Shown one piece after another: positions 1,235-13,910 of a DNA stretch of 55,136 nt (positions are counted from its first letter, which is position 1; every line of letters starts with the position of its first letter). The notes below the pieces were generated by a model. It worked only from the letters and a program-made list of their open reading frames with translations. It searched no databases and was not told where the DNA came from. The stretch comes from an uncultured Christensenellaceae bacterium. GTDB taxonomy: Bacteria > Bacillota > Clostridia > Christensenellales > UMGS416. The stretch covers positions 1 through 55,136 of the forward strand of contig CALWDW010000041.1 in NCBI GenBank assembly GCA_944376795.1. The letters are read 5' to 3'. A program made the position numbers and the translations under genes.

Positions 1235-3355
1235 ATGCAACGATTGGAGGCCCTGCGGCAGGAGCTTTCCGCCGAGGCGGAGGTTGCAGATATCCGTCCC
1301 CTGCTGCTCTGCCGCGGCTATGAGGCCCACCTGGACGATCCCATTCCCTTGGCCCGGGCCCATGCCGCCGCCGCGCTGTTTACCGGCCATGCCAAGCATA
1401 TCTATCCCCACGACCGTATCCTGGGTTCTCTGCGGGGAGCCTTGGGGAAAGCGTCCCCCGCCCGGCTGGCTTGGGCCCGGGAACTGGCCGACAGCTATGG
1501 ACGCAACACATTTTGGACCAACTGCGACCACTACGCCCCGGACTACCCCACCTTCCTGGCTCAAGGCATTCCCGGCACCCTGGCGCGGATCGCGGACGCC
1601 CGGATCGTCCACGCCGGGGACCCCGGCCGCCTGCAGAATCTGGAGGCCATGGAGCTGACCCTCCGCGGCTTCCGGGAGATGATCCTGGGCTACGCCCAAG
1701 CGGCCCGGAACGCCGCCGGAGGAGATCCCGAGCTGCTGGCTGCCGCCGATGCCTGCCAGGCCGTGGCCGACGCCCCTCCCGCCACCTTCCGGGAAGCCCT
1801 CCAGCTGGCCTGGCTATGCCACACGGCCTTCCTGTACGAAGGGCGCTACGCCATGGCCCTGGGACGGATGGACCAGTACCTTTACCCCTACTACGCCGCC
1901 GACCGGGCGGCCGGACGGATCACCCCGGAGGAAGCCCAGGACCTGCTGGCCTGCACGCTGCTGAAGATCGGGGAATACCGGCTGCTGGGAGGGGACGACG
2001 TGGTCAATATCGCCATCGCCGGCTGCACCCGCCAGGGAGATCCCGCCCTCAATCCCCTCTCCTACGCCATACTCCGCGCCGTGCGGGACTGCAATATCCC
2101 CGGCCCCAACCTCTCCGCCCGGCTCTATCCCGGCGTGGACGAGGGCTTCCTGGACGAATGCCTCCAGGTGATCGGTACCGGCCTGGGCTATCCCGCCCTG
2201 ATGAACGACGCGGTCAATATCCCGGCGCTGGCTGCCAAGGGCTATCCTCTGGAGGACGCCCGGGACTACGCCATGGTGGGCTGCATTGAGAACTTCATCC
2301 CCGGCAAGCAGCCGCCCTGGTCGGACGGCCGCTACAACACCCCCAAGTACCTGGAACTGGCCCTCAATGGCGGCGTATGCATGCTCACCGGGGTTCCCAT
2401 GGGACCGCCCACCCCGCCCGCCGAGGAAATGGCTTCCATGGAGGACTTCATGGCGGCGCTGAAGCGCCAGATGCGCCATGGCGCATCGCTGTATATGGCC
2501 CGCTTCCGCAACGAAAACGACCGCTACCGCCGGGAAAACTATACCCAGCCCTTTCTCTCCCTCTTCTGTCAGGACTGTATTGGCCGGGGCCTGGACATCC
2601 GGGAGGGCGGGGCCCTCTACCCCAGCGTCCACGGCGCAGGCTGTATGGGGATCGCCACGGTGGCCGATTCCCTGGCGGCCATCCACCGGGTGGTATTCCA
2701 GGAAGGCCGCTGCACCCTGGCCCAGCTGCGGGATGCCCTGGCCGCCGACTTCCAGGGCAGGGAACCCCTCCAGGCCGCCCTGCTGCGGGCCCCCAAGTAC
2801 GGCAATGGCGACCCCTTTGTGGATCAATACGCCCAATGGTTTGTAGACTTCCAGGCCGAGCTCTTTGACGGCTACCGCACCCCCGACGGCGGCCGGGTCT
2901 ACATTGCCATCGCCTCCAATGTCCAGAACATTCCCGCCGGCCGGGAGGTGGCCGCCACCCCCGACGGACGCCGGGCCCGGGCGCCCCTCAGCGACGCCGC
3001 CTCCCCCATGCACGGCATGGATCGGCAGGGGCCCACGGCGGTGATCCGATCGGTCACCCGGCCGGACTACACCAAAGTGGCCTGCGGCACCGTAGTCAAC
3101 CAGAAATACAGCCCCGAAATGTTCTCCCGGCCTGAAAAGCGGGCGCTGCTGCGCTCCATGATCCAGGTGTATCTGGCCCAAGGCGGCCAGGAAATCCAGA
3201 TCAACGCCGTCTCCCGGGAGCTGCTGCGGGACGCCATGGACCATCCGGAAGCATATGGCAGCCTGGTGGTGCGGGTCTCAGGCTTCTCGGCCTACTATAC
3301 CACCCTGGACCGGACCGTCCAGGAGGATATCCTCCAACGAACCCAGCACGGATAA
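1235..3355 (+). CDS. Glycyl radical enzyme (pyruvate formate-lyase superfamily), substrate unknown
   Basis: A 706-residue cytoplasmic glycyl radical enzyme. The active-site thiyl cysteine lies in MVGCIEN (Cys about 350) with the adjacent Glu typical of C-C/C-O/C-N lyases and dehydratases. The radical site is RVSGFSA (Gly about 683), 23 residues from the C-terminus, a normal distance. It is shorter than PFL (about 760) and most dehydratases (about 790-850), so the substrate cannot be assigned by length or motif. The start at 1235 is supported by AGGAGGTGAC upstream. It forms an operon with the dehydrogenase at 3372, suggesting that it makes an aldehyde or ketone which is then reduced or oxidised. 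The radical-SAM activase such enzymes need is not adjacent and is not seen anywhere in the window, so it must be supplied elsewhere. Radical chemistry makes it oxygen-sensitive. Confidence 0.93.
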   Translation: MQRLEALRQELSAEAEVADIRPLLLCRGYEAHLDDPIPLARAHAAAALFTGHAKHIYPHDRILGSLRGALGKASPARLAWARELADSYGRNTFWTNCDHYAPDYPTFLAQGIPGTLARIADARIVHAGDPGRLQNLEAMELTLRGFREMILGYAQAARNAAGGDPELLAAADACQAVADAPPATFREALQLAWLCHTAFLYEGRYAMALGRMDQYLYPYYAADRAAGRITPEEAQDLLACTLLKIGEYRLLGGDDVVNIAIAGCTRQGDPALNPLSYAILRAVRDCNIPGPNLSARLYPGVDEGFLDECLQVIGTGLGYPALMNDAVNIPALAAKGYPLEDARDYAMVGCIENFIPGKQPPWSDGRYNTPKYLELALNGGVCMLTGVPMGPPTPPAEEMASMEDFMAALKRQMRHGASLYMARFRNENDRYRRENYTQPFLSLFCQDCIGRGLDIREGGALYPSVHGAGCMGIATVADSLAAIHRVVFQEGRCTLAQLRDALAADFQGREPLQAALLRAPKYGNGDPFVDQYAQWFVDFQAELFDGYRTPDGGRVYIAIASNVQNIPAGREVAATPDGRRARAPLSDAASPMHGMDRQGPTAVIRSVTRPDYTKVACGTVVNQKYSPEMFSRPEKRALLRSMIQVYLAQGGQEIQINAVSRELLRDAMDHPEAYGSLVVRVSGFSAYYTTLDRTVQEDILQRTQHG

Positions 3356-7293: not shown

Positions 7294-7301
7294 CATACGA
7301 T
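7294..7301 (+). promoter_or_regulatory. Candidate sigma-E -10 element of the cotJ operon
   Basis: CATACGAT matches the mother-cell sigma-E -10 consensus (CATACAAT-like). It lies 33 bp before the cotJA start and 17 bp before its ribosome site. A good -35 (ATA type) at the usual spacing is not evident, so the assignment rests on the -10 and on the known sigma-E control of cotJ in Bacillus subtilis. Confidence 0.45.
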
Positions 7302-7334: not shown

Positions 7335-7517
7335 GTGCAGACCACACCCATGACCGCCGAATGCAGCCTGCCGCTGGCCATTGCCACCGTGCCTATGCAG
7401 TCATTCCAGCGGCTCTATGATGCCCAAACCGCCCTGAGCAAAGGGACGGTATTTCGTGAACTGGATCTACCTTTTTGGGGAAGCGAGGTGAACCGCTGTG
7501 GCAGCTGCCGTCGATGA
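7335..7517 (+). CDS. cotJA: Spore coat-associated protein CotJA
   Basis: A 60-residue protein with the CotJA signature: LPLAIATVPMQSFQRLYDAQTALSKGTVFRELDLPF covers residues 12-47 and matches the family pattern of a P-Q-F motif followed by a G-T-x-F-x-E-L-x-x-P-F motif. A GTG start at 7335 is chosen because AAAGGAGG (7319-7326) is spaced 8 bases from it; the ATG at 7350 is too far away. In B. subtilis CotJA is a small inner-coat protein that helps bring CotJC into the coat. It is the first gene of the operon and overlaps cotJB by 20 bp. Confidence 0.9.
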   Translation: MQTTPMTAECSLPLAIATVPMQSFQRLYDAQTALSKGTVFRELDLPFWGSEVNRCGSCRR

Positions 7518-7758
7518 ACAGGTTTTGATGCGTGCCATTGAGGCCGTAAGCTTCGTCATGGACGATGTCCGCCTCTTTCTGGACACCCATCCCCAAGATG
7601 CCGACGCGCTGGCCTACTACAACAAGGCCCGCGGCGAGCGCGACGCGTTGGTCGCCCAATATACGGCCGCCTATGGTCCATTAAACTTTTACCAGGCCGG
7701 GGGGAGCACCCAGTGGAACTGGGTGCAAGGCCCCTGGCCCTGGCAGATTGAGAGGTAA
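7498..7758 (+). CDS. cotJB: Spore coat protein CotJB
   Basis: An 86-residue protein with the CotJB features: VSFVMDDVRLFLDTHPQDADAL near the N-terminus (about residues 17-39), ALAYYNKARGERD, and the closing YGPLNF ... WNWVQGPWPWQ. It starts with GTG at 7498 inside the end of cotJA and is preceded by GCGAGGTGAAC, so translation is coupled. CotJB is of unknown biochemical function and always travels with CotJA and CotJC. It ends 3 bp before the cotJC start. Confidence 0.93.
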   Translation: MAAAVDEQVLMRAIEAVSFVMDDVRLFLDTHPQDADALAYYNKARGERDALVAQYTAAYGPLNFYQAGGSTQWNWVQGPWPWQIER

Positions 7759-7761
7759 GCC

Positions 7762-7965
7762 ATGTGGTCTTATGAAAAACGCCTGCAATACCCCATCCGC
7801 ATCCGCCGCCCCAATGCCGCGGCGGCCAAGGTGATCATCAGCCAGTACGGCGGCCCTGACGGCGAGCTCGGCGCCAGTATGCGCTACCTTTCCCAGCGCT
7901 ACACCATGCCCTACCGCAATGTAGCGGGGGTACTGACCGACATCGGTACCGAGGATTCACAATGA
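7762..7965 (+). pseudogene. cotJC: 5' part of cotJC (manganese catalase), interrupted by an element
   Basis: The N-terminal 65 residues of CotJC run from MWSYEKRLQYP through IISQYGGPDGELGASMRYLSQRYTMPY to LTDIGTE, and then stop after the foreign residues DSQ. CotJC is a dimanganese catalase of the spore coat that destroys hydrogen peroxide. Its Mn ligands include the Glu and His of an E-E-L-x-H motif, and reading stops exactly within this motif, so the fragment cannot be active. The missing rest is at 13494-13910, 5.5 kb downstream on the same strand. Joining position 7955 to 13505 gives ...LTDIGTE-ELAHLEM... and a 600-nt gene of 199 residues. The start follows GAGAGGTAAGCC. Confidence 0.93.
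7945..7955 (+). other. Left attachment core of the cotJC-interrupting element
   Basis: GGTACCGAGGA lies in the cotJC codons for Gly-Thr-Glu-Glu. The identical 11 bp recur at 13494-13504. To the left the sequence is cotJC; to the right it is element DNA, which reaches the stop codon of the recombinase gene 2 bp later. This is the expected crossover core of a serine recombinase. Confidence 0.88.
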
Positions 7966-9528
7966 ACCGGCAGCGCCCTCTATTGTAAAGATCCATTGCA
8001 CGGGCAGCTGGCGGAGCACCACCGCAATCTGTCCGTCCGGGTAGACCGTCATTCGTTCCAACAGCCGCGTCCGAAAGCCCTCCGCGCCGGCATCCCGGAG
8101 GATCCCGGCGATCTCGGCACGCACATCCCACGCCGGACTTCGGGCGGCGTTCTTCTCCAACTGCGCCTCCAGCTGCGCGATACGGCGATTGCACCCCTGC
8201 TCCAGGTAGCGGAAGTCCTCCTCGGTGATTTCCTGCCCATAGAACGCCTCCATGGCCCGGCGCTTTCGCCCGATCTCCCGCTCCTGTTCCCGCAGCAGGC
8301 TGCGGCGTTCCTCCTCCGCCGTCTCCTCGCCTGCCAGCACGGTTTCCACCACCCGGGCCAGTTCCTCGGTCAGGCGCGCCGCATCGGGCACCGCCGTGTC
8401 CACCGCCTGGCGGAGAATCTCCAGGGCCGCGTCCTCCCGCAGCTGCCGGCCGATTTCGCAGCCCCAATCTATGCCTTGGAAATCACGCCGGGCGCTTCCC
8501 TGGGCGGCAGCCTTTCCGCAGCGCCATACCCGATAGAAAGCGCCCGAGGCCGTTTTTTTCTTCCTTGCCACGAAGCCGCTGCCACAGCACCCACAAAGGA
8601 TTTTCCCAGAAAGGGGATACCGGTTCCCATGGCCTGGTCGGGAGCCCTCGCTGCGGCAGCGGCGCATGCGCTCCTGCTGCGCCGCCTCCCAGGTAGCACG
8701 GTCCAGTATGGGCTCGTGATGATCCCGCAGGATGACCATTGCCTCCTGCCCATGGTTGTATTTCTTCTGGTGGGTGAGATAGTCGGGGGTATAGGTCTTT
8801 TTCTGAATCAAATCGCCGCAATACTTCTCGTTTTTTAGAATTTTGAGCACTGTCGCCGCCGACCACTTGCAGCTGCCCCGGGTAGACGCAATACCTTCCT
8901 GCCGCAGCTCCCGGGCAATGACGGAGGCGCCCTTTCCCTCTGTCAGGTACTTGTGAAAGATGCGCCGCACCGTCCGGGCGCCCTCGGGATTGACGGCAAG
9001 CTTCCCGTCCACCACGTCGTACCCCAGCAGAGGGCCGCCAAATACCACCCCCTGCTCCATCCGTCGGGTCTGCCCCCACTTAACCCGTTGGGAGGTCCTG
9101 CGGCTCTCCTCCTGGGCGATGGAAGCCATGATCGCCAGCCGGAGCTCCCCCTCCTGCTGGCGGGTATCGATGCCGTCGTTGAGAAAGAGGACGCCCACCC
9201 CATACCGTCCCAGCTCTCGCGTGTACTGCAGCGCGTCCAGGGTATTGCGGGCAAAGCGGCTGACCTCCTTGGTGATAATGAGGTCGATGCCGCCCGCCCG
9301 CGCCTGGTCCATCATGGCACGAAACTGGCGCCGTCTTTGGGTGCTGGTTCCGGAAATGCCCTGGTCGGCATAGATATGGCAGAGCTCCCAGGCGGGATTG
9401 CGCTGGATCCACTCCTGGAAATACCGGCGCTGGCTCTCCAGGGAATGGGCCTGATCCTCCCGGTCGGTGGAAACCCGGCAGTAAGCCGCCACCCGAACTC
9501 GATCCCGAGGGGTGTTCGGTGCTTTCAT
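7957..9528 (-). CDS. Large serine recombinase of the cotJC element
   Basis: A 523-residue large serine recombinase. The N-terminal resolvase/invertase domain starts VRVAAYCRVSTDREDQ with catalytic Ser about 20, then GGIDLIITKEVSRFARNT and MASIAQEESRRTSQRVKWG. A recombinase domain follows (about 170-270, LLGYDV ... GKGASVIARELRQEGI), then a zinc-ribbon start GKILCGCCGSGFV, and a coiled-coil region near residues 400-450 typical of this class. The start at 9528 overlaps the upstream small ORF by ATGA. In-frame codons further upstream coincide with that ORF and lack family similarity. Its last codon lies 2 bp from the attachment core, as in many site-specific elements. It should catalyse excision between the two GGTACCGAGGA cores. 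Confidence 0.95.
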   Translation of the reverse strand: MKAPNTPRDRVRVAAYCRVSTDREDQAHSLESQRRYFQEWIQRNPAWELCHIYADQGISGTSTQRRRQFRAMMDQARAGGIDLIITKEVSRFARNTLDALQYTRELGRYGVGVLFLNDGIDTRQQEGELRLAIMASIAQEESRRTSQRVKWGQTRRMEQGVVFGGPLLGYDVVDGKLAVNPEGARTVRRIFHKYLTEGKGASVIARELRQEGIASTRGSCKWSAATVLKILKNEKYCGDLIQKKTYTPDYLTHQKKYNHGQEAMVILRDHHEPILDRATWEAAQQERMRRCRSEGSRPGHGNRYPLSGKILCGCCGSGFVARKKKTASGAFYRVWRCGKAAAQGSARRDFQGIDWGCEIGRQLREDAALEILRQAVDTAVPDAARLTEELARVVETVLAGEETAEEERRSLLREQEREIGRKRRAMEAFYGQEITEEDFRYLEQGCNRRIAQLEAQLEKNAARSPAWDVRAEIAGILRDAGAEGFRTRLLERMTVYPDGQIAVVLRQLPVQWIFTIEGAAGSL

Positions 9529-9686
9529 GGTTTTCCCAGCCTCCGGCGGCACGCCTCCCGTTGATCGGGCCGCAGCCTGCCCCGTCTTTCCAGGGCCCAC
9601 AGGATGGCCTCCTGGTATTCTCGAAGAAACGCCGGTCGGGGATGGTCCTCCCCTTCCCGCCGAAGCAGCCTTGGCAATGTCTTCAT
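9525..9686 (-). CDS. Small basic ORF coupled to the recombinase; candidate directionality factor
   Basis: A 53-residue, strongly basic, helix-prone protein with the core REYQEAILWALERRGRL and the tail REACRRRLGKP. It is preceded by GAAGGGAGGG, starts at 9686 and ends in an ATGA overlap with the recombinase start, so the two are translationally coupled. I recognise no family. Large serine recombinases need a small recombination directionality factor to excise, and in the Clostridioides difficile skin element a small protein of this kind is required. Size, charge and coupling make that role plausible here but unproven. Confidence 0.7.
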   Translation of the reverse strand: MKTLPRLLRREGEDHPRPAFLREYQEAILWALERRGRLRPDQREACRRRLGKP

Positions 9687-9706
9687 CGCCGTCCCTCCCT
9701 TCTCCG

Positions 9707-9715
9707 TAACTTATG
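9707..9715 (-). promoter_or_regulatory. Candidate sigma-K/E-type -10 before the recombinase operon
   Basis: On the minus strand CATAAGTTA fits the mother-cell sigma-K -10 pattern CATA-N3-TA and lies 20 bp before the start of the 53-residue ORF. The sigma-K -35 (AC) is not at the expected spacing, so this is weak. If real, it would tie recombinase expression to the mother cell. Confidence 0.3.
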
Positions 9716-9742
9716 CGGGAGACACGGCAGACTTGCAGGGCA

Positions 9743-11833
9743 TCAGCCGCGGTGAAGCTGGCCCGAGCGCAGGGCGGTGGCGATGGAAATCTTCTTAACC
9801 GTACCGCTGTCAAAGGCCACCACCCCAATGTCGCCGATGCGGCTCACCAGGATTCCATGGCCAAAGGTTTTGTGGAACACCGGGCAGCCAGGGACGTAGT
9901 GCCGGGACTGGGCTTCCGCCTGCCGCACGTCCTGGCTGCGGGCGGTGCGGAGCTTTCTGCCCAGTGTGGGCTTGCGCTCCTTGGGCGGAAAAACTTCGCG
10001 GGAAAAGGATGAAGCCAGCCCCTCCCGGCGGAACGTAACAATCCCCAGTTCCTCACGCGCCCGGGTCATGGCCACGTAGAAGACCCGCCGCTCCTCCTCG
10101 TAGGCATCCCGTTCTTCCGGCGCTGGATCCTTGCCCGGCAGTATCTTGGGAAGCAGCCCGTCGGCCACGTCCATCAGGATAACCCGCTGGTATTCCAAGC
10201 CTTTGCTGGAATGGATGGTAGAAAGAATGAATGGGTGCTCCGGGCGGTCCGATCCCCGGCGCACCACCTCCTGCAGTTCCTCCAGCCGCTCCAAAAGCCG
10301 GGCCGGCGTGGGCTCCGCGTCCCCCAGCGCCTGGAGGATCTCCGCCTTATGCAGGTCGCCGCCCCGGTCCTCCAGATACGCCCCATAGCCCATGAAGTGC
10401 ACGATACGGTACACCGCCTTGCCCGCCGGCTCCTCCAGGAGATGGGCCAGATGGGTCTGCAGCGCCCGGCACTGCTTCTGCGTCCAGGCGGAGGCGGCAG
10501 GCAGGCCCGCCACATAGTCCAGAAGGGTCGTCCCCGCCTGTCCGGCCCGGGAAACCGCCTCCTGGGCCATCCCCCGGCTGATGCCCGCCCCCAGCTTGTA
10601 GTATAGGTTCAGAAACAGCTCCCCATCCTGGGGGTTCTGGGCAAAGCGGATGATATCGGTGATATCCCGCACCACCCGATTGGTAAAAAAGAGGCTCTCA
10701 TTCTGGCGGCAGCGATAGGGGAGCCCCGCCCGGTCCAGCAGGTCAATCAAGGGCAGGGCGCTGTCATTGTCCCGGTACAGGACGGCGGTCTCCGTCCGGC
10801 AGTCCTCGGCCAGTTTACACAGGTAGCGATACTGCCCGGCCCGGTCGTACACGGAGATCTCCCGGATGGGCGCTCCGTCGCCGCGGACGGCCCGCATGTG
10901 CTTGGGACGGCGTTGGGTGTTTTTTTGAATAAACGCATCGGCGGCCTCCACAATGGGCCGGGCGGAGCGGTAATTCTGCTCCATACGCAGCACCTTGGCG
11001 CCGGGATAGGCCGTATCGAACTGTGTGAGCGCCTGGGGATAGGCCGCGCGGAAGCCGTAGATGCTCTGATCCTCGTCCCCTACCAGGAAGAGATTCCCGG
11101 ACTCTCCGGCTAGGAGGCGGAGAATGGCATGCTGGATCCTGGAAGTGTCCTGGGCCTCATCCACGCAGAAATAACGGTACCGCCGCCGGACCGCTTGGAG
11201 GATCTCCGGATACCGGCGGAGAATCCGCAGCGCATAGACCATCTGGTCGTCATAATCCATACGCCGGCGTTCCCGGAGCGCGTCGTTATAAGCCTTATAG
11301 AAGGATGGGAAATCCACGCCCTCCGTCTCGATGCGGGCCAGTTCCTCCCCTTTGAGCATCTGGTTCTTGGCATAGGTGATGGCGGTCTGCAGCGCCTTGA
11401 CCGTGCTTTCGGCGGCAAACTCCTGGCACTGGTCGCGATAGAGGGCGGCCAGGAGGGCGCTTTTCTCCCCGCCGTCCTCCAGCAGAGCAAAGGCCCTGCC
11501 GCCGGTGACGCGCTCATAGCGGCGGATGATCCGGCTGCACACGCCGTTAATGGTATGAAACGCCATCCGCTCCGCCTCTTCCCGGCCAAAAAAGGCAGCA
11601 AACCGCTCCCGCATATCGCGGGCAGCGGCTACGGTATAGGTCATGGTCAGGATACTCTCCGGCGGGATCCCACAGACGTAGCGCATATAGCCCAGCCGGG
11701 CCACCAGCACGGTGGTTTTGCCGCTTCCCGGCACGGCCAGCAGCAGCACCGGCCCGTCCACAGTCCGAACCGCCGCCTCCTGCTGAGGATCCAGGGCCAC
11801 AGGGCACTGGGATTTGAATCGGGTAAAGTCCAT
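9743..11833 (-). CDS. UvrD/PcrA-like superfamily 1 DNA helicase
   Basis: A 696-residue SF1A helicase. Walker A is AVPGSGKTT (residues 33-41), followed by a Q-motif-like PQQEAAV upstream, motif II VDEAQDTS, motif III GDEDQSIYGFR, motif IV QNYRS, motif V TIHSSKGLEY and motif VI VAMTRARE. A C-terminal tudor-like domain ends the protein (FGHGILVSRIGDIGVVAFDSGTVKKI), as in PcrA. It translocates 3'-5' on single-stranded DNA. The start at 11833 follows GCGGAGGGCAGG. It is a cargo gene of the cotJC element, 57 bp from the small ORF, and may aid element maintenance or be an accessory second UvrD homologue. The host presumably has its own pcrA elsewhere. Confidence 0.9.
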   Translation of the reverse strand: MDFTRFKSQCPVALDPQQEAAVRTVDGPVLLLAVPGSGKTTVLVARLGYMRYVCGIPPESILTMTYTVAAARDMRERFAAFFGREEAERMAFHTINGVCSRIIRRYERVTGGRAFALLEDGGEKSALLAALYRDQCQEFAAESTVKALQTAITYAKNQMLKGEELARIETEGVDFPSFYKAYNDALRERRRMDYDDQMVYALRILRRYPEILQAVRRRYRYFCVDEAQDTSRIQHAILRLLAGESGNLFLVGDEDQSIYGFRAAYPQALTQFDTAYPGAKVLRMEQNYRSARPIVEAADAFIQKNTQRRPKHMRAVRGDGAPIREISVYDRAGQYRYLCKLAEDCRTETAVLYRDNDSALPLIDLLDRAGLPYRCRQNESLFFTNRVVRDITDIIRFAQNPQDGELFLNLYYKLGAGISRGMAQEAVSRAGQAGTTLLDYVAGLPAASAWTQKQCRALQTHLAHLLEEPAGKAVYRIVHFMGYGAYLEDRGGDLHKAEILQALGDAEPTPARLLERLEELQEVVRRGSDRPEHPFILSTIHSSKGLEYQRVILMDVADGLLPKILPGKDPAPEERDAYEEERRVFYVAMTRAREELGIVTFRREGLASSFSREVFPPKERKPTLGRKLRTARSQDVRQAEAQSRHYVPGCPVFHKTFGHGILVSRIGDIGVVAFDSGTVKKISIATALRSGQLHRG

Positions 11834-11878
11834 CCTGCCCTCCGCTTCATGAGACTGTACAAGCCGGCGCCGGAATCC

Positions 11879-12340
11879 TTATGCCTCCTCCAGGCAGGCG
11901 AGGATCTCGGCGGCGTTGGTGTCGGGCTTGACCTTGGGCATGGCCTTGCGGATGACGCCCTCTTCGTCAATCAGGTAGGTGGTACGCACCACGCCCATGC
12001 TCACCTTGCCGTAGAGCTTCTTTTCCTGCCAAACGCCATAGGCCTGGATGGCCGTAAGCTCCGGGTCGGAGAGAAGCAAAAAAGGCAACTGATACTTCTC
12101 AGCAAACCGCCCATGGGAGGCTGCGGAGTCGCGGCTGATGCCGATCACCACCGTATTCCGGGCCTGGAATTCTCCATAGTGCTGGGCAAAGGCGCAGGCC
12201 TGCCGGGTGCAGCCTGGGGTATTGTCCTTGGGATAGAAGTACAGCACCACCTTCTTTCCCCGGAAATCCGACAGGCTGACGTTCCTTCCGTCCTTGTCGG
12301 GCAGGGTAAAGTCCGGGGCTTTGGTTCCGATTTCCAGCAT
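11879..12340 (-). CDS. bcp: Thioredoxin-dependent thiol peroxidase (peroxiredoxin Bcp)
   Basis: A 153-residue Bcp/PrxQ peroxiredoxin starting with the family-typical [11 protein letters not shown]. The peroxidatic Cys44 in TPGCTRQAC and Cys49 give the CxxxxC pattern of atypical 2-Cys Bcp. The Arg of the active site is present in [17 protein letters not shown] sequence downstream. It reduces hydrogen and organic peroxides with thioredoxin. It sits inside the cotJC element, co-directional with the helicase (45 bp) and the dehydrogenase (22 bp). It is odd that an element which blocks a peroxide-destroying catalase itself carries a peroxidase. The start at 12340 follows CGAAAGGAGAACAAACC. Confidence 0.94.
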
Positions 12341-12362
12341 GGTTTGTTCTCCTTTCGTGGGT

Positions 12363-13406
12363 TTAGGCTTCGGGGATCAGCGCCACCTTCATCACCCCAT
12401 CCCGGCGGCGCGCAAAGAGGTCGTAGGCCTCCTGGATCCGATGCAGAGGAAAGGTATGGGTGATCAGAGGCGCGGTATCCAGCCTGCCCTGTGCGATGAG
12501 GTCCAGGATCTCGCCGCAGTGGCAGCCGTCCACGCCGCCGGTTTTGAAGGTCAGGTTCTTGCCGTACATTTCGGGCAAGGGCAAAGTCTGGGGGGCGTCA
12601 TACAGGGCCACTACCGTGACGATGGCATTGGGCCGGGCGCAGCGCCAGGCCATGCGGAAGGTATCCGGGCTTCCCGCCGCCTCCACCACCACATCGGCTC
12701 CGCCGTGGCCGGCCCGCGCCCGGACCCATTCCTCCGCCTGCTCCGGGCCCACGGTGAGAACCTCCGGATCCAGCCGCTGGGCAAATTCCAGCCGGCCGGG
12801 GTCGATATCGCAGAGGATGATCTGCCCGGGCCGGTACAGCCTGGCGCATTGCAGCGTGCAAAGCCCCGTAGGGCCTGCGCCGAGGATCAGCACGGTATCC
12901 CCCTCCTGGATCTGGGAAATGCGGGCCGCCCAGAAGCCGGTGGCCAGCACATCCCCCACCAGCAGCGCCTGGGAATCGGTCAGGCCCTGGGGAATCCGAT
13001 TCAGGCCCTGGTCGGCATAGGGTACCCGGACATATTCGGCCTGGCCGCCGTCGATGCGGCAGCCCAGGGCCCATCCCCCGTGAGGATCGGTGCAGTTATT
13101 GACCCAGCCGTGCCGGCAGAAGAAGCACGTTCCGCAGAAGGTCTCCACGTTCACGGTCACCCGGTCGCCGGGGCGGAAGCCGGAGACCGCCTCCCCCACC
13201 TGCTCCACCACGCCCACCATCTCGTGGCCCACGGTAATGCCCGGAACCGCCCGAGGCACCGCGCCGTGCCGAATATGCAGGTCGCTGGTGCAGATGCTGC
13301 TCATGGTGACCCGGATGATGGCGTCCCGGGGATGCTGCAGCGTGGGCTTGGGCTTGTCCAGCAGCCGGAATTCTCCGGGTTTGACGTAGGTATAGGCCAG
13401 CATCAT
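12363..13406 (-). CDS. Zinc-dependent alcohol dehydrogenase, cargo of the cotJC element
   Basis: A 347-residue MDR dehydrogenase. Catalytic-zinc ligands lie in [13 protein letters not shown] and GHEMVG, the structural-zinc lobe is [15 protein letters not shown], and the Rossmann motif is LGAGPTG with acid CDIDPGR, favouring NAD. It is a different subfamily from the dehydrogenase at 3372 and closer to sorbitol/2,3-butanediol or glutathione-independent formaldehyde dehydrogenases. The substrate is unknown. Two start codons in tandem (13406 and 13403) follow AAAGGGGAGGGAGA. It is the outermost element gene, starting 88 bp from the right attachment core. No repressor or regulator of it is visible. 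Confidence 0.9.
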
Positions 13407-13493
13407 TCTCCCTCCCCTTTCATCGAATCCTTTCTCATTATAAACGGCGAAGAAATGCCCGTCAACGAGGCGGCACGTTTTGCCTCCACGCCA

Positions 13494-13504
13494 GGTACCG
13501 AGGA
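13494..13504 (+). other. Right attachment core of the cotJC-interrupting element
   Basis: GGTACCGAGGA, identical to 7945-7955. To its right the cotJC frame resumes with CTGGCCCACCTGGAAATG (LAHLEM). The flanks outside the core differ between the two ends, as expected for attL and attR of a serine recombinase. Confidence 0.88.
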
Positions 13505-13910
13505 ACTGGCCCACCTGGAAATGGTCAGCGCCATTGTCTACCAGCTGACCAAGGACCTTCCCATAAGCGAGATCAAAGCCTCGGGCTTTGACACCTACTT
13601 TGTGGACCATACCACCGGGGTTTGGCCCAATGCCGCCAGCGGCACGCCCTTTGACGCCCTGTGCTTTGCCAGCAAGGGGGACGCCATTACCGACCTGACC
13701 GAGGACATGGCCGCCGAGCAGAAGGCCCGTACCACCTATGACAACATTCTCCGCCTGGTGGATGATCCCGACGTGCGGGATCCCATCAAATTCCTTCGGG
13801 CCCGGGAGATCGTACACTTCCAGCGCTTCGGCGAGGCATTGGAGAACGTCAAGTCCCAGCTGGATTCCCGGAACTTCTACGCCTTCAATCCGGAGTTTGA
13901 CCGGCGGTAA
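13494..13910 (+). pseudogene. cotJC: 3' part of cotJC (manganese catalase), displaced by the element
   Basis: This is the C-terminal two thirds of CotJC: GTEELAHLEM, then VDHTTGVWPNAASG, KGDAITDLTEDMAAEQKARTTYDNILRL, DPIKFLRAREIVHFQRFGEAL, ending FYAFNPEFDRR. It supplies the remaining Mn ligands (the His of ELAH, the Glu of AAEQKAR and the His of REIVHFQRF). It has no start codon or ribosome site of its own at the break; the frame simply runs in from element DNA. It shows no internal stop or frameshift, so it is under selection or only recently separated, which argues for regular excision. Confidence 0.93.

What the first reader, a model, noticed from the sequence alone, without database searches (positions are those of the whole stretch)
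7762..13910. cotJC is split by a skin-like element whose precise removal restores the manganese catalase
The 5' part of cotJC ends in GGTACCGAGGA and the 3' part begins with the same 11 bp, 5,549 bp apart. Joining them gives LTDIGTEELAHLEM and an uninterrupted 199-codon gene. A large serine recombinase gene begins 2 bp inside the left junction. The 3' fragment, cut off from any start, has no stop or frameshift, which argues that it is still used. Together with a sigma-E-like -10 ahead of cotJA, this suggests mother-cell-specific excision as for skin in sigK. I know of no established cotJC case in this lineage. The junction logic is seen directly; developmental timing is inference.
Basis: partly seen in the sequence, partly recalled or inferred. 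Interest (0 to 1): 0.95.

Follow-up and report, generated by a model that had tools for sequence, protein, structure and literature searches.

The report
Spore catalase gene assembled from pieces
In this bacterium the spore-coat catalase gene cotJC is cut in two by a 5.5-kb element that carries its own recombinase, which is predicted to cut itself out and rejoin the gene during spore formation, and in one related species the same gene lies in five pieces.

Summary
cotJC (7762-7944 + 13494-13910) is split at codon 62 by a 5,549-bp element with an exact 11-bp core at both ends; rejoining gives 199 codons. One correction: the recombinase gene ends, not begins, at the left junction. It is the genome's only Mn-catalase gene.
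It is not a one-off. Of the 80 best recombinase relatives kept from GTDB genomes, 69 have a cotJC piece within 500 bp. In a class sample 31 of 97 genomes with a match show cotJC only in pieces (my reading). Other recombinase clades cut cotJC at three more sites; Butyricicoccus sp. Marseille-Q5471 has five pieces over 83 kb that join into one open frame.
Sporulation control is inferred: a conserved small protein precedes the recombinase (76 of 81), with a CATA box at fixed distance (60 of 73; shuffles 5.5), as in mother-cell promoters. Elements move between species. The only sign of excision is one draft genome whose scaffold also holds the rejoined junction. No paper found names a cotJC case. 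New variant of skin-type elements.

The parts
7294..7301 (+). CATACGAT, mother-cell-type -10-like box before cotJA
   Evidence: sequence; resemblance only
7335..7517 (+). cotJA (GTG start)
   Evidence: PF11007 4.3e-14
7498..7758 (+). cotJB (GTG start)
   Evidence: PF12652 1.5e-29
7762..7944 (+). cotJC 5' piece, codons 1-61
   Evidence: PF05067 1.5e-18 for 7762-7962
7945..7955 (.). left core GGTACCGAGGA (attL)
   Evidence: exact repeat
7945..13493 (.). intervening element, 5,549 bp, 63.8% G+C
7957..9528 (-). large serine recombinase, 523 aa
   Evidence: PF00239, PF07508, PF13408
9525..9686 (-). small protein of 53 aa overlapping the recombinase start; candidate excision factor (RDF)
   Evidence: HMM of the family, E 1.8e-20 (the window's copy is in the model); found upstream of the recombinase in 76 of 81 loci
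9708..9715 (-). CATAAGTT, promoter-like box 29 nt before the small ORF
   Evidence: position conserved in the family
9743..11833 (-). UvrD/PcrA-like helicase (cargo)
   Evidence: PF00580 9.3e-61; 56% identical relative beside the recombinase in L053
11879..12340 (-). PrxQ/Bcp peroxiredoxin (cargo)
   Evidence: PF00578 2.1e-46; 81% identical in the element of L039
12363..13406 (-). zinc alcohol-dehydrogenase family protein (cargo)
   Evidence: PF08240 8.4e-28; 75% identical in the element of L039
13494..13504 (.). right core GGTACCGAGGA (attR)
   Evidence: exact repeat
13494..13910 (+). cotJC 3' piece, codons 62-199 and stop
   Evidence: PF05067 4.7e-28

Best explanation
A 5,549-bp element encoding a large serine recombinase sits inside cotJC at codon 62, and the recombinase, likely helped by the small protein encoded just before it, is predicted to excise the element precisely between the two core copies in the sporulating mother cell, which would restore the 199-codon catalase gene there while the spore inherits the element. 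Shown: the insertion, the shared core, the in-frame rejoin and the recombinase at the junction. Inferred: that the small protein is the directionality factor, that the CATA box is read by sigma-E or sigma-K, and that excision takes place in the mother cell. The element belongs to a mobile family that enters cotJC of different species at the same codon; because the mother cell dies, excision there would cost the element nothing and spare the host's spore coat, so cotJC would work as a safe docking gene. Other recombinase clades use three further sites of the same gene.
For: Exact 11-bp core and 199-codon rejoin. Only PF05067 gene of the genome. Relatives of this recombinase sit at cotJC: 77 of 80 loci hold a cotJC piece, 69 within 500 bp; of 29 recombinase loci from the order (28-59% identical, flanks of at most 1.5 kb, some at contig ends) 4 do. 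64 of the 80 loci and the window show the 5' piece running to LTDIG or a near variant (the filter itself asks for the glycine). Rebuilt attP has dyad symmetry of 13.3 of 22 on average in 24 pairs, against 9.3-9.8 for attL, attR and attB, 10.7 for mismatched partners and 9.2 shuffled; window 12. An intact gene with the uninterrupted site exists in the same family (G005). A draft genome of a relative (UBA1417, L057) holds attL, attR and, after a 2-base gap, a contig that starts with the rejoined junction LTDVG-TEELAH. 56 of 57 single-site loci have an open frame from an ATG to the junction. Median pN/pS is 0.18 for 5' pieces and 0.20 for 3' pieces. Small ORF upstream in 76 of 81 loci; CATA 24-42 nt before it in 60 of 73 (shuffles 5.5, max 17) and 21 of 33 dereplicated (2.7, max 9) (slot chosen). 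Many loci have ATA-N17-CATAYATT, close to the mapped C. difficile spoIIID promoter ATA-N16-CATATATA (PMC3789822, passages). cotJC is listed as sigma-E-regulated in B. subtilis (PMC3416734, passages). Spo0A and sigma-E over cut-off.
Against: No read, PCR or circle shows excision in this organism; two exact attP patterns gave 0 hits in IMG/VR. The rejoined junction of L057 may come from a strain without the element. The window's own box (CATAAGTT) has no clear sigma-E -35, and the strict sigma-E pattern is met in only 5 of 37 dereplicated loci (shuffles 0.4), sigma-K in 2 of 37 (no excess). The small protein matches no Pfam family. Elements are often recent arrivals, so open frames and low pN/pS may date from before the insertion; only 24 of 156 pairs look old enough, their pS is near saturation, and the window's three pairs there have pN/pS of 0.41-0.65. 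The tool flags stops inside some pieces (I take them to lie at the edges but did not check each), and L076 lacks an ATG. SpoIIID (102.4 of 111.5 bits) and sigma-K (284.7 of 298.65) fall under their cut-offs.
Confidence: 0.8

Rival explanations
1. A plain site-specific mobile element that targets a conserved gene; cotJC is simply inactivated and dispensable, with no programmed excision.
For: Elements move between species: in 242 of 244 pairs the recombinase DNA is more alike than the host cotJC 5' DNA. C. difficile mutants in two cotJC-like genes had less catalase activity but no significant coat defect (reported in PMC11222575, passage). Some genomes keep a second, unsplit copy (G128, G145); in G128 it is a diverged paralogue (129 of 182 nt identical).
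Against: Pieces of about 30 codons stay in frame in genomes with three to five pieces, apart from stops flagged near some edges; rejoined junction in one assembly; conserved mother-cell-type box before the recombinase operon; pairs with old insertions and low pN/pS, e.g. L061/L067 pN 0.000, pS 0.498.
Confidence: 0.08
2. Excision is real but not tied to sporulation: it follows phage-like induction or chance, so cotJC is restored in a fraction of cells only.
For: A relative in the same family seems to carry a phage-like element at the same site (G004, terminase-like ORF recognised by eye); 8 of 36 IMG/VR contigs hold the piece between sites A and B; excised yin element of C. botulinum was detected at all time points (PMC10747680, passages).
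Against: CATA box at a fixed distance before the small-ORF/recombinase unit across the family.
Confidence: 0.11
3. The split is an assembly join.
For: The genome is a draft of 62 contigs.
Against: Same junction in independent assemblies, including isolates such as Pseudoflavonifractor phocaeensis An901, whose element also shares cargo order.
Confidence: 0.01

Closest known systems
skin elements in sigK (Bacillus subtilis, Clostridioides difficile)
   Same: Large serine recombinase in an element that splits a mother-cell gene, in-frame rejoin; in C. difficile a 72-aa directionality factor under sigma-E and SpoIIID (PMC5025042, passages).
   Different: Target is a catalase, not a sigma factor; no phage genes seen here; the best sigK-like gene of this genome is uninterrupted; the family is mobile and the same gene is cut at four sites.
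gin element in gerE, Bacillus cereus ATCC10987 (PMC5595907; introduction and passages read)
   Same: Non-phage intervening element with serine recombinases in a sporulation gene.
   Different: 28.6 kb with three recombinase genes, in a transcription-factor gene.
Elements in spsM, spoVFB, spoVR and yabG (PMC6957869, PMC10747680; passages)
   Same: Element inside a sporulation gene; excision restores the gene.
   Different: None is cotJC; the passages I read name one element per gene.
Heterocyst interruption elements (PMC4874684; passages)
   Same: 10 of 87 interrupted genes hold several elements, Rivularia nifD four; excision in a differentiating cell.
   Different: Genes of heterocyst-forming cyanobacteria; here a spore-coat gene of Clostridia with separate serine-recombinase clades per site.
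phi027 prophage beside a CotJC homologue in C. difficile R20291 (PMC11222575; passages)
   Same: Mobile element next to a CotJC-type gene.
   Different: Described as adjacent, not as splitting it.

Membership tests
Sporulation gene-intervening elements (skin type) | Element lies inside the coding region of a sporulation gene | tested here: met
   cotJC split at codon 62
Sporulation gene-intervening elements (skin type) | Element encodes its own site-specific recombinase | tested here: met
   Resolvase, Recombinase and Zn-ribbon domains, frame intact
Sporulation gene-intervening elements (skin type) | Short direct repeat at the ends and in-frame rejoin | tested here: met
   11 bp, 199 codons; attP symmetry 12 of 22, shuffled 95% point 11
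Sporulation gene-intervening elements (skin type) | Directionality factor in the element | tested here: inconclusive
   Conserved 53-aa protein ahead of the recombinase; no Pfam match, only weak PHROG matches of other members
Sporulation gene-intervening elements (skin type) | Mother-cell-specific expression of recombinase or directionality factor | tested here: inconclusive
   CATA box at conserved place; sigma factor not shown
Sporulation gene-intervening elements (skin type) | Excision during sporulation | not testable with these tools
   Needs DNA or reads from sporulating cells; one relative's scaffold holds the rejoined junction, cell type unknown
Prophage | Phage structural genes in the element | tested here: not met
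   Recombinase, small ORF, helicase, peroxiredoxin and dehydrogenase were found; Pfam was run on these, not on every ORF
Mn catalase (PF05067) | Family profile matched by both pieces | tested here: met
   1.5e-18 and 4.7e-28, both over cut-off
NCBIfam ManCatBAC equivalog | Score over 350 bits | tested here: not met
   32.5 and 57.9 bits for the two pieces scanned apart

The most novel reading that the evidence does not exclude
cotJC of gut Clostridia is a shared docking gene assembled by programmed DNA splicing: recombinase clades, each loyal to one of four sites at the catalase's metal-ligand motifs, hold the gene in up to five pieces over 83 kb and rejoin it in every mother cell. About a third of sampled species with the gene carry it only in pieces. 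It would be the most fragmented sporulation gene known, arrived at independently of the nif genes of heterocysts.
Probability: 0.6. Interest if true: 0.92.

Novelty: new variant of a known kind. Interest (0 to 1): 0.86.

Why it matters
The reports of intervening elements in sporulation genes that I saw describe one gene and a few strains at a time. If cotJC is rejoined in mother cells, programmed DNA rearrangement is routine in a large part of the Clostridia, including cultured gut genera. It would explain why cotJC looks broken in many genomes, show how one host gene can serve several unrelated elements as a harmless address, offer naturally site-specific recombinases for four targets in one gene, and make testable what sets the order and efficiency of several excisions in one gene.

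Tried and rejected
Longest-common-substring core detection for 26 relatives and the window gave 10 bp or more in 8 of the 27 and short chance-like matches in the rest; I replaced it by codon-anchored junctions. Strict sigma-E patterns upstream were met by only 5-6 of 37 dereplicated loci (shuffles 0.4-0.7), and the sigma-K pattern by 2 of 37, which 14 of 200 shuffles reach. Exact attP patterns in IMG/VR: 0 hits. A 4.4-kb 'Bacteriophage sp.' record looked like an excised circle but is a linear stretch with the 5' cotJC piece. Unsplit copies beside split ones in G126 and G128 are diverged paralogues, not excised forms (134 of 186 and 129 of 182 nt identical); for G145 my motif found no unsplit copy to compare. 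The second recombinase of the genome (contig C56) lies beside no sporulation gene that I could recognise by eye. Pfam and PHROGs gave no family for the window's small protein. Structure prediction was not used: a 53-aa protein would not decide the RDF question.
Full report
Observation. The 11-bp core GGTACCGAGGA stands at 7945-7955 and 13494-13504; removing the 5,549 bp between gives a 199-codon cotJC. The 2.68-Mb genome has three copies of the 11-mer, two of them these, and two of its reversed control. Both pieces match PF05067 over its cut-off at adjoining profile positions, and PF05067 has no other match in the genome. The recombinase gene runs on the minus strand from 9528 to a stop at 7957-7959, so its 3' end, not its start, lies at the left junction.

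What the element holds. Besides the recombinase (PF00239, PF07508, PF13408) it has a 53-aa ORF overlapping the recombinase start, a UvrD/PcrA-like helicase, a PrxQ/Bcp peroxiredoxin and a zinc dehydrogenase. I saw no phage or conjugation gene, but ran Pfam on these genes only. The element of Pseudoflavonifractor phocaeensis An901 (L039) carries a peroxiredoxin (81%) and dehydrogenase (75%) in the same order; L053 has a helicase (56%) beside the recombinase.

The recombinase family and cotJC. A scan of GTDB genomes with the recombinase alone gave 451 relatives, of which the tool kept the best 80. 77 of the 80 loci hold a cotJC piece, 66 within 150 bp and 69 within 500 bp of the recombinase; L093, L108 and L111 hold none in the DNA kept. 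As a contrast, of 29 recombinase loci from the order (L005-L033, 28-59% identical, flanks of at most 1.5 kb) 4 hold a piece; two of the most similar, L007 and L008, start at or near contig ends. In 64 of the 80 loci and in the window the 5' piece runs to LTDIG or a near variant before it leaves the cotJC sequence; my filter asks for that glycine, and the 16 others failed it or lack the piece. On the 3' side, where the filter does not ask for it, the rows begin GGN-ACN-GAR-GAR. Exceptions seen later are G127 and G148, which have tandem elements at this site, and G007, which has another recombinase. Rebuilt attP sites of 24 loci have dyad symmetry of 13.3 matches in 22, against 9.8 (attB), 9.3 (attL), 9.8 (attR), 10.7 (mismatched partners) and 9.2 (shuffled, 95% point 11); the window's attP scores 12. 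One of the 24, L057, had its right end misread (next paragraph); without it the mean is 13.5.

A rejoined junction in one draft genome. In L057 (Ruminococcaceae bacterium UBA1417, a metagenome assembly) the scaffold holds attL (...CCTGACCGATGTCGGTACAGAAGCGTCAC), attR (...CCCCCCGGTCGGTACAGAAGAACTGGCGCAC) and then, after two N, a contig that starts TCCTGACCGATGTCGGTACAGAAGAACTGGCGCACCTCGAG, which is the rejoined gene (LTDVG-TEELAHLE). The simplest reading is that reads of the rejoined form were in the sample, from cells that had excised the element or from a strain without it.

Empty and occupied sites among relatives. In the window's own family (8 genomes) four have a cotJC match: G005 is intact with the site uninterrupted; the window, G004 and G007 are split at or within a few bases of the same place. 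G004 continues into DNA with a terminase-like ORF (recognised by eye); G007 has a recombinase 24% identical to the window's next to the 3' piece. In the order, 50 of 160 genomes matched: by my reading 26 have an intact gene, 11 a split one and 13 only weak matches (recounted). In the class, 97 of 146 genomes matched: 63 have an intact gene, 31 only pieces, one (G284) two abutting pieces, and two only a ~33% paralogue (recounted). These tallies rest on match ranges, not on inspection of each locus; the match list was cut, and contig ends may mimic some splits.

More than one split. Split points cluster at codons ~30 (A), 62 (B), ~134 (C) and ~174 (D). In Butyricicoccus sp. Marseille-Q5471 the pieces lie at 205516, 212909, 262180, 274768 and 288904 of one contig and join into a 228-codon open frame; the cut points were chosen at shared or conserved codons, and at B, where two elements lie in tandem, by codon and not by a shared core. 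There each split has a recombinase frame 4-40 nt away. Over the loci examined, 42 recombinase frames could be tied to a split, 28 of them within 120 nt and 36 within 700 nt; none was found at the D split of G148. All 12 at A and all 4 at D lie at the right end on the gene's strand; B and C vary. On a tree of 72 recombinases those at A (12), C (3) and D (4) each form one clade with 100/100 support; B falls in more than one clade (39 rows needing 3 changes and 4 rows needing 2); all labels need 7 changes against a shuffled mean of 31.0, none of 200 as low. The tree program warns of long branches joining, so the deep order is not claimed. Aligned with solved Mn catalases, E35, E65, H68, E136 and H169 match the metal ligands that I recall as E35, E66, H69, E148 and H181; the four sites lie 2-5 codons from the nearest. 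The likely reason is that these are among the gene's most constant DNA words.

Mobility. In 242 of 244 locus pairs with recombinases over 85% identical, recombinase DNA is more alike than the host cotJC 5' DNA; several pairs have 97-99.9% recombinase identity and 70-87% cotJC identity. L080 and a few other multi-split loci in that set have non-cotJC DNA in the compared stretch. So the family spreads between species and enters the same codon anew.

Are the pieces used? 56 of 57 single-site loci, the window included, have an open frame from an ATG to the junction (6 multi-split loci set aside). Among 156 pairs with recombinase pS under 0.62, those with cotJC pS over 0.1 have median pN/pS 0.18 for the 5' piece; 19 pairs of 3' pieces have 0.20. 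In 24 pairs cotJC is no more diverged than the recombinase, so the insertion may predate the host split; L061/L067 has pN 0.000 and pS 0.498, but L078/L092 and the three pairs with the window have 0.41-0.65, and pS is near saturation. This supports selection after insertion but does not prove it.

Timing. A conserved small ORF (invariant F20, Q25, L29, L32, Q42 in 12 chosen members) lies upstream of the recombinase on the same strand in 76 of 81 loci (missing in L053, L066, L079, L093, L102). CATA stands 24-42 nt before it in 60 of 73 loci with enough sequence (shuffles 5.5, max 17; other slots 3-8) and in 21 of 33 dereplicated ones (2.7, max 9; other slots 2-7); the slot was chosen. Many loci, chiefly of Lachnospiraceae, share ATAYGGTACAA-N9-CATAYATT, close to the mapped sigma-E promoter ATA-N16-CATATATA of C. 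difficile spoIIID (PMC3789822, passages read). Most Oscillospiraceae-type loci, the window among them, have another upstream word and CATA only. In C. difficile skin excision depends on a 72-aa factor under sigma-E and SpoIIID (PMC5025042, passages); the small ORF fits that role by place and size only. In B. subtilis cotJC is listed under sigma-E (PMC3416734, passages); its C. difficile homologues cotCB and cotD are in the sigma-K regulon. The genome encodes Spo0A (two matches over the cut-off) and sigma-E; SpoIIID and sigma-K matches fall just below theirs.

Literature. Ten searches of open-licence PMC papers (cotJC a term in five, manganese catalase or cotJ operon in two more; several lists were cut) showed no report of an element inside cotJC. 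I read passages of PMC3416734, PMC4028888 and PMC11222575, which name cotJC; other listed papers that hold the word were not opened. Subscription papers and preprints are not held. Known hosts of such elements in the passages read are sigK, spsM, spoVFB, spoVR, gerE and yabG. Several elements in one gene are known from heterocyst genes, with four in Rivularia nifD (PMC4874684), so the multi-split principle is not new to biology, but I found no sporulation case.

Verdict. The element is a new member of the skin type at a new gene, and the gene as a whole, cut at up to four sites by separate recombinase clades, is a new variant of that kind. Excision in the mother cell is predicted, not shown.

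Noticed in passing
L057 / L125 (Ruminococcaceae bacterium UBA1417), around the 2-N gap: The scaffold holds attL, attR and the rejoined cotJC junction at once: a sign that the excised or empty form was in the sample.
   Followed up: partly
L037 (G004) about 1695-3198; L036 (G007) 400-2380: In two relatives of the same family cotJC is split at about the same codon by other elements: one with a terminase-like ORF, one with a recombinase only 24% identical to the window's.
   Followed up: partly
L151-L155 (Butyricicoccus sp. Marseille-Q5471, contig 205516-288987): cotJC in five pieces with a recombinase beside each split and two elements in tandem at site B (inner core copy at 228456).
   Followed up: yes
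L158-L161 (Intestinibacillus massiliensis Marseille-P3216T): cotJC in four pieces over about 76 kb; an inner core copy at 236722 suggests tandem elements at site B.
   Followed up: partly
L214, L215, L216, L219, L220, L221, L223, L224 (IMG/VR): 8 of 36 contigs filed as viral hold the cotJC piece between sites A and B (two more, L217 and L218, hold the 3' side), so elements in cotJC are being called viruses.
   Followed up: partly
L253 (MT839280.1): A 4.4-kb 'Bacteriophage sp.' record holds a 5' cotJC piece plus a recombinase 98% identical to that of Oscillibacter sp. ER4.
   Followed up: yes
L217, L218, L006, L010, L011: Recombinases of or near the same clade abut the other junction or lie in the other orientation; GGTACC is a palindrome, which might allow insertion either way.
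   Followed up: no
window 11879-13406 and L039 4187-6403: Peroxiredoxin and dehydrogenase cargo shared in order between the window's element and that of Pseudoflavonifractor phocaeensis An901: a peroxide-defence gene rides in an element that splits a catalase gene.
   Followed up: partly
G000 contig C56 17190-18347 (in L250): A second, distant serine recombinase gene in the same genome, not beside a sporulation gene that I recognised.
   Followed up: partly
L077 and L110: Genomes in which cotJC is also cut near codon 134-137 by recombinases of a third clade.
   Followed up: yes
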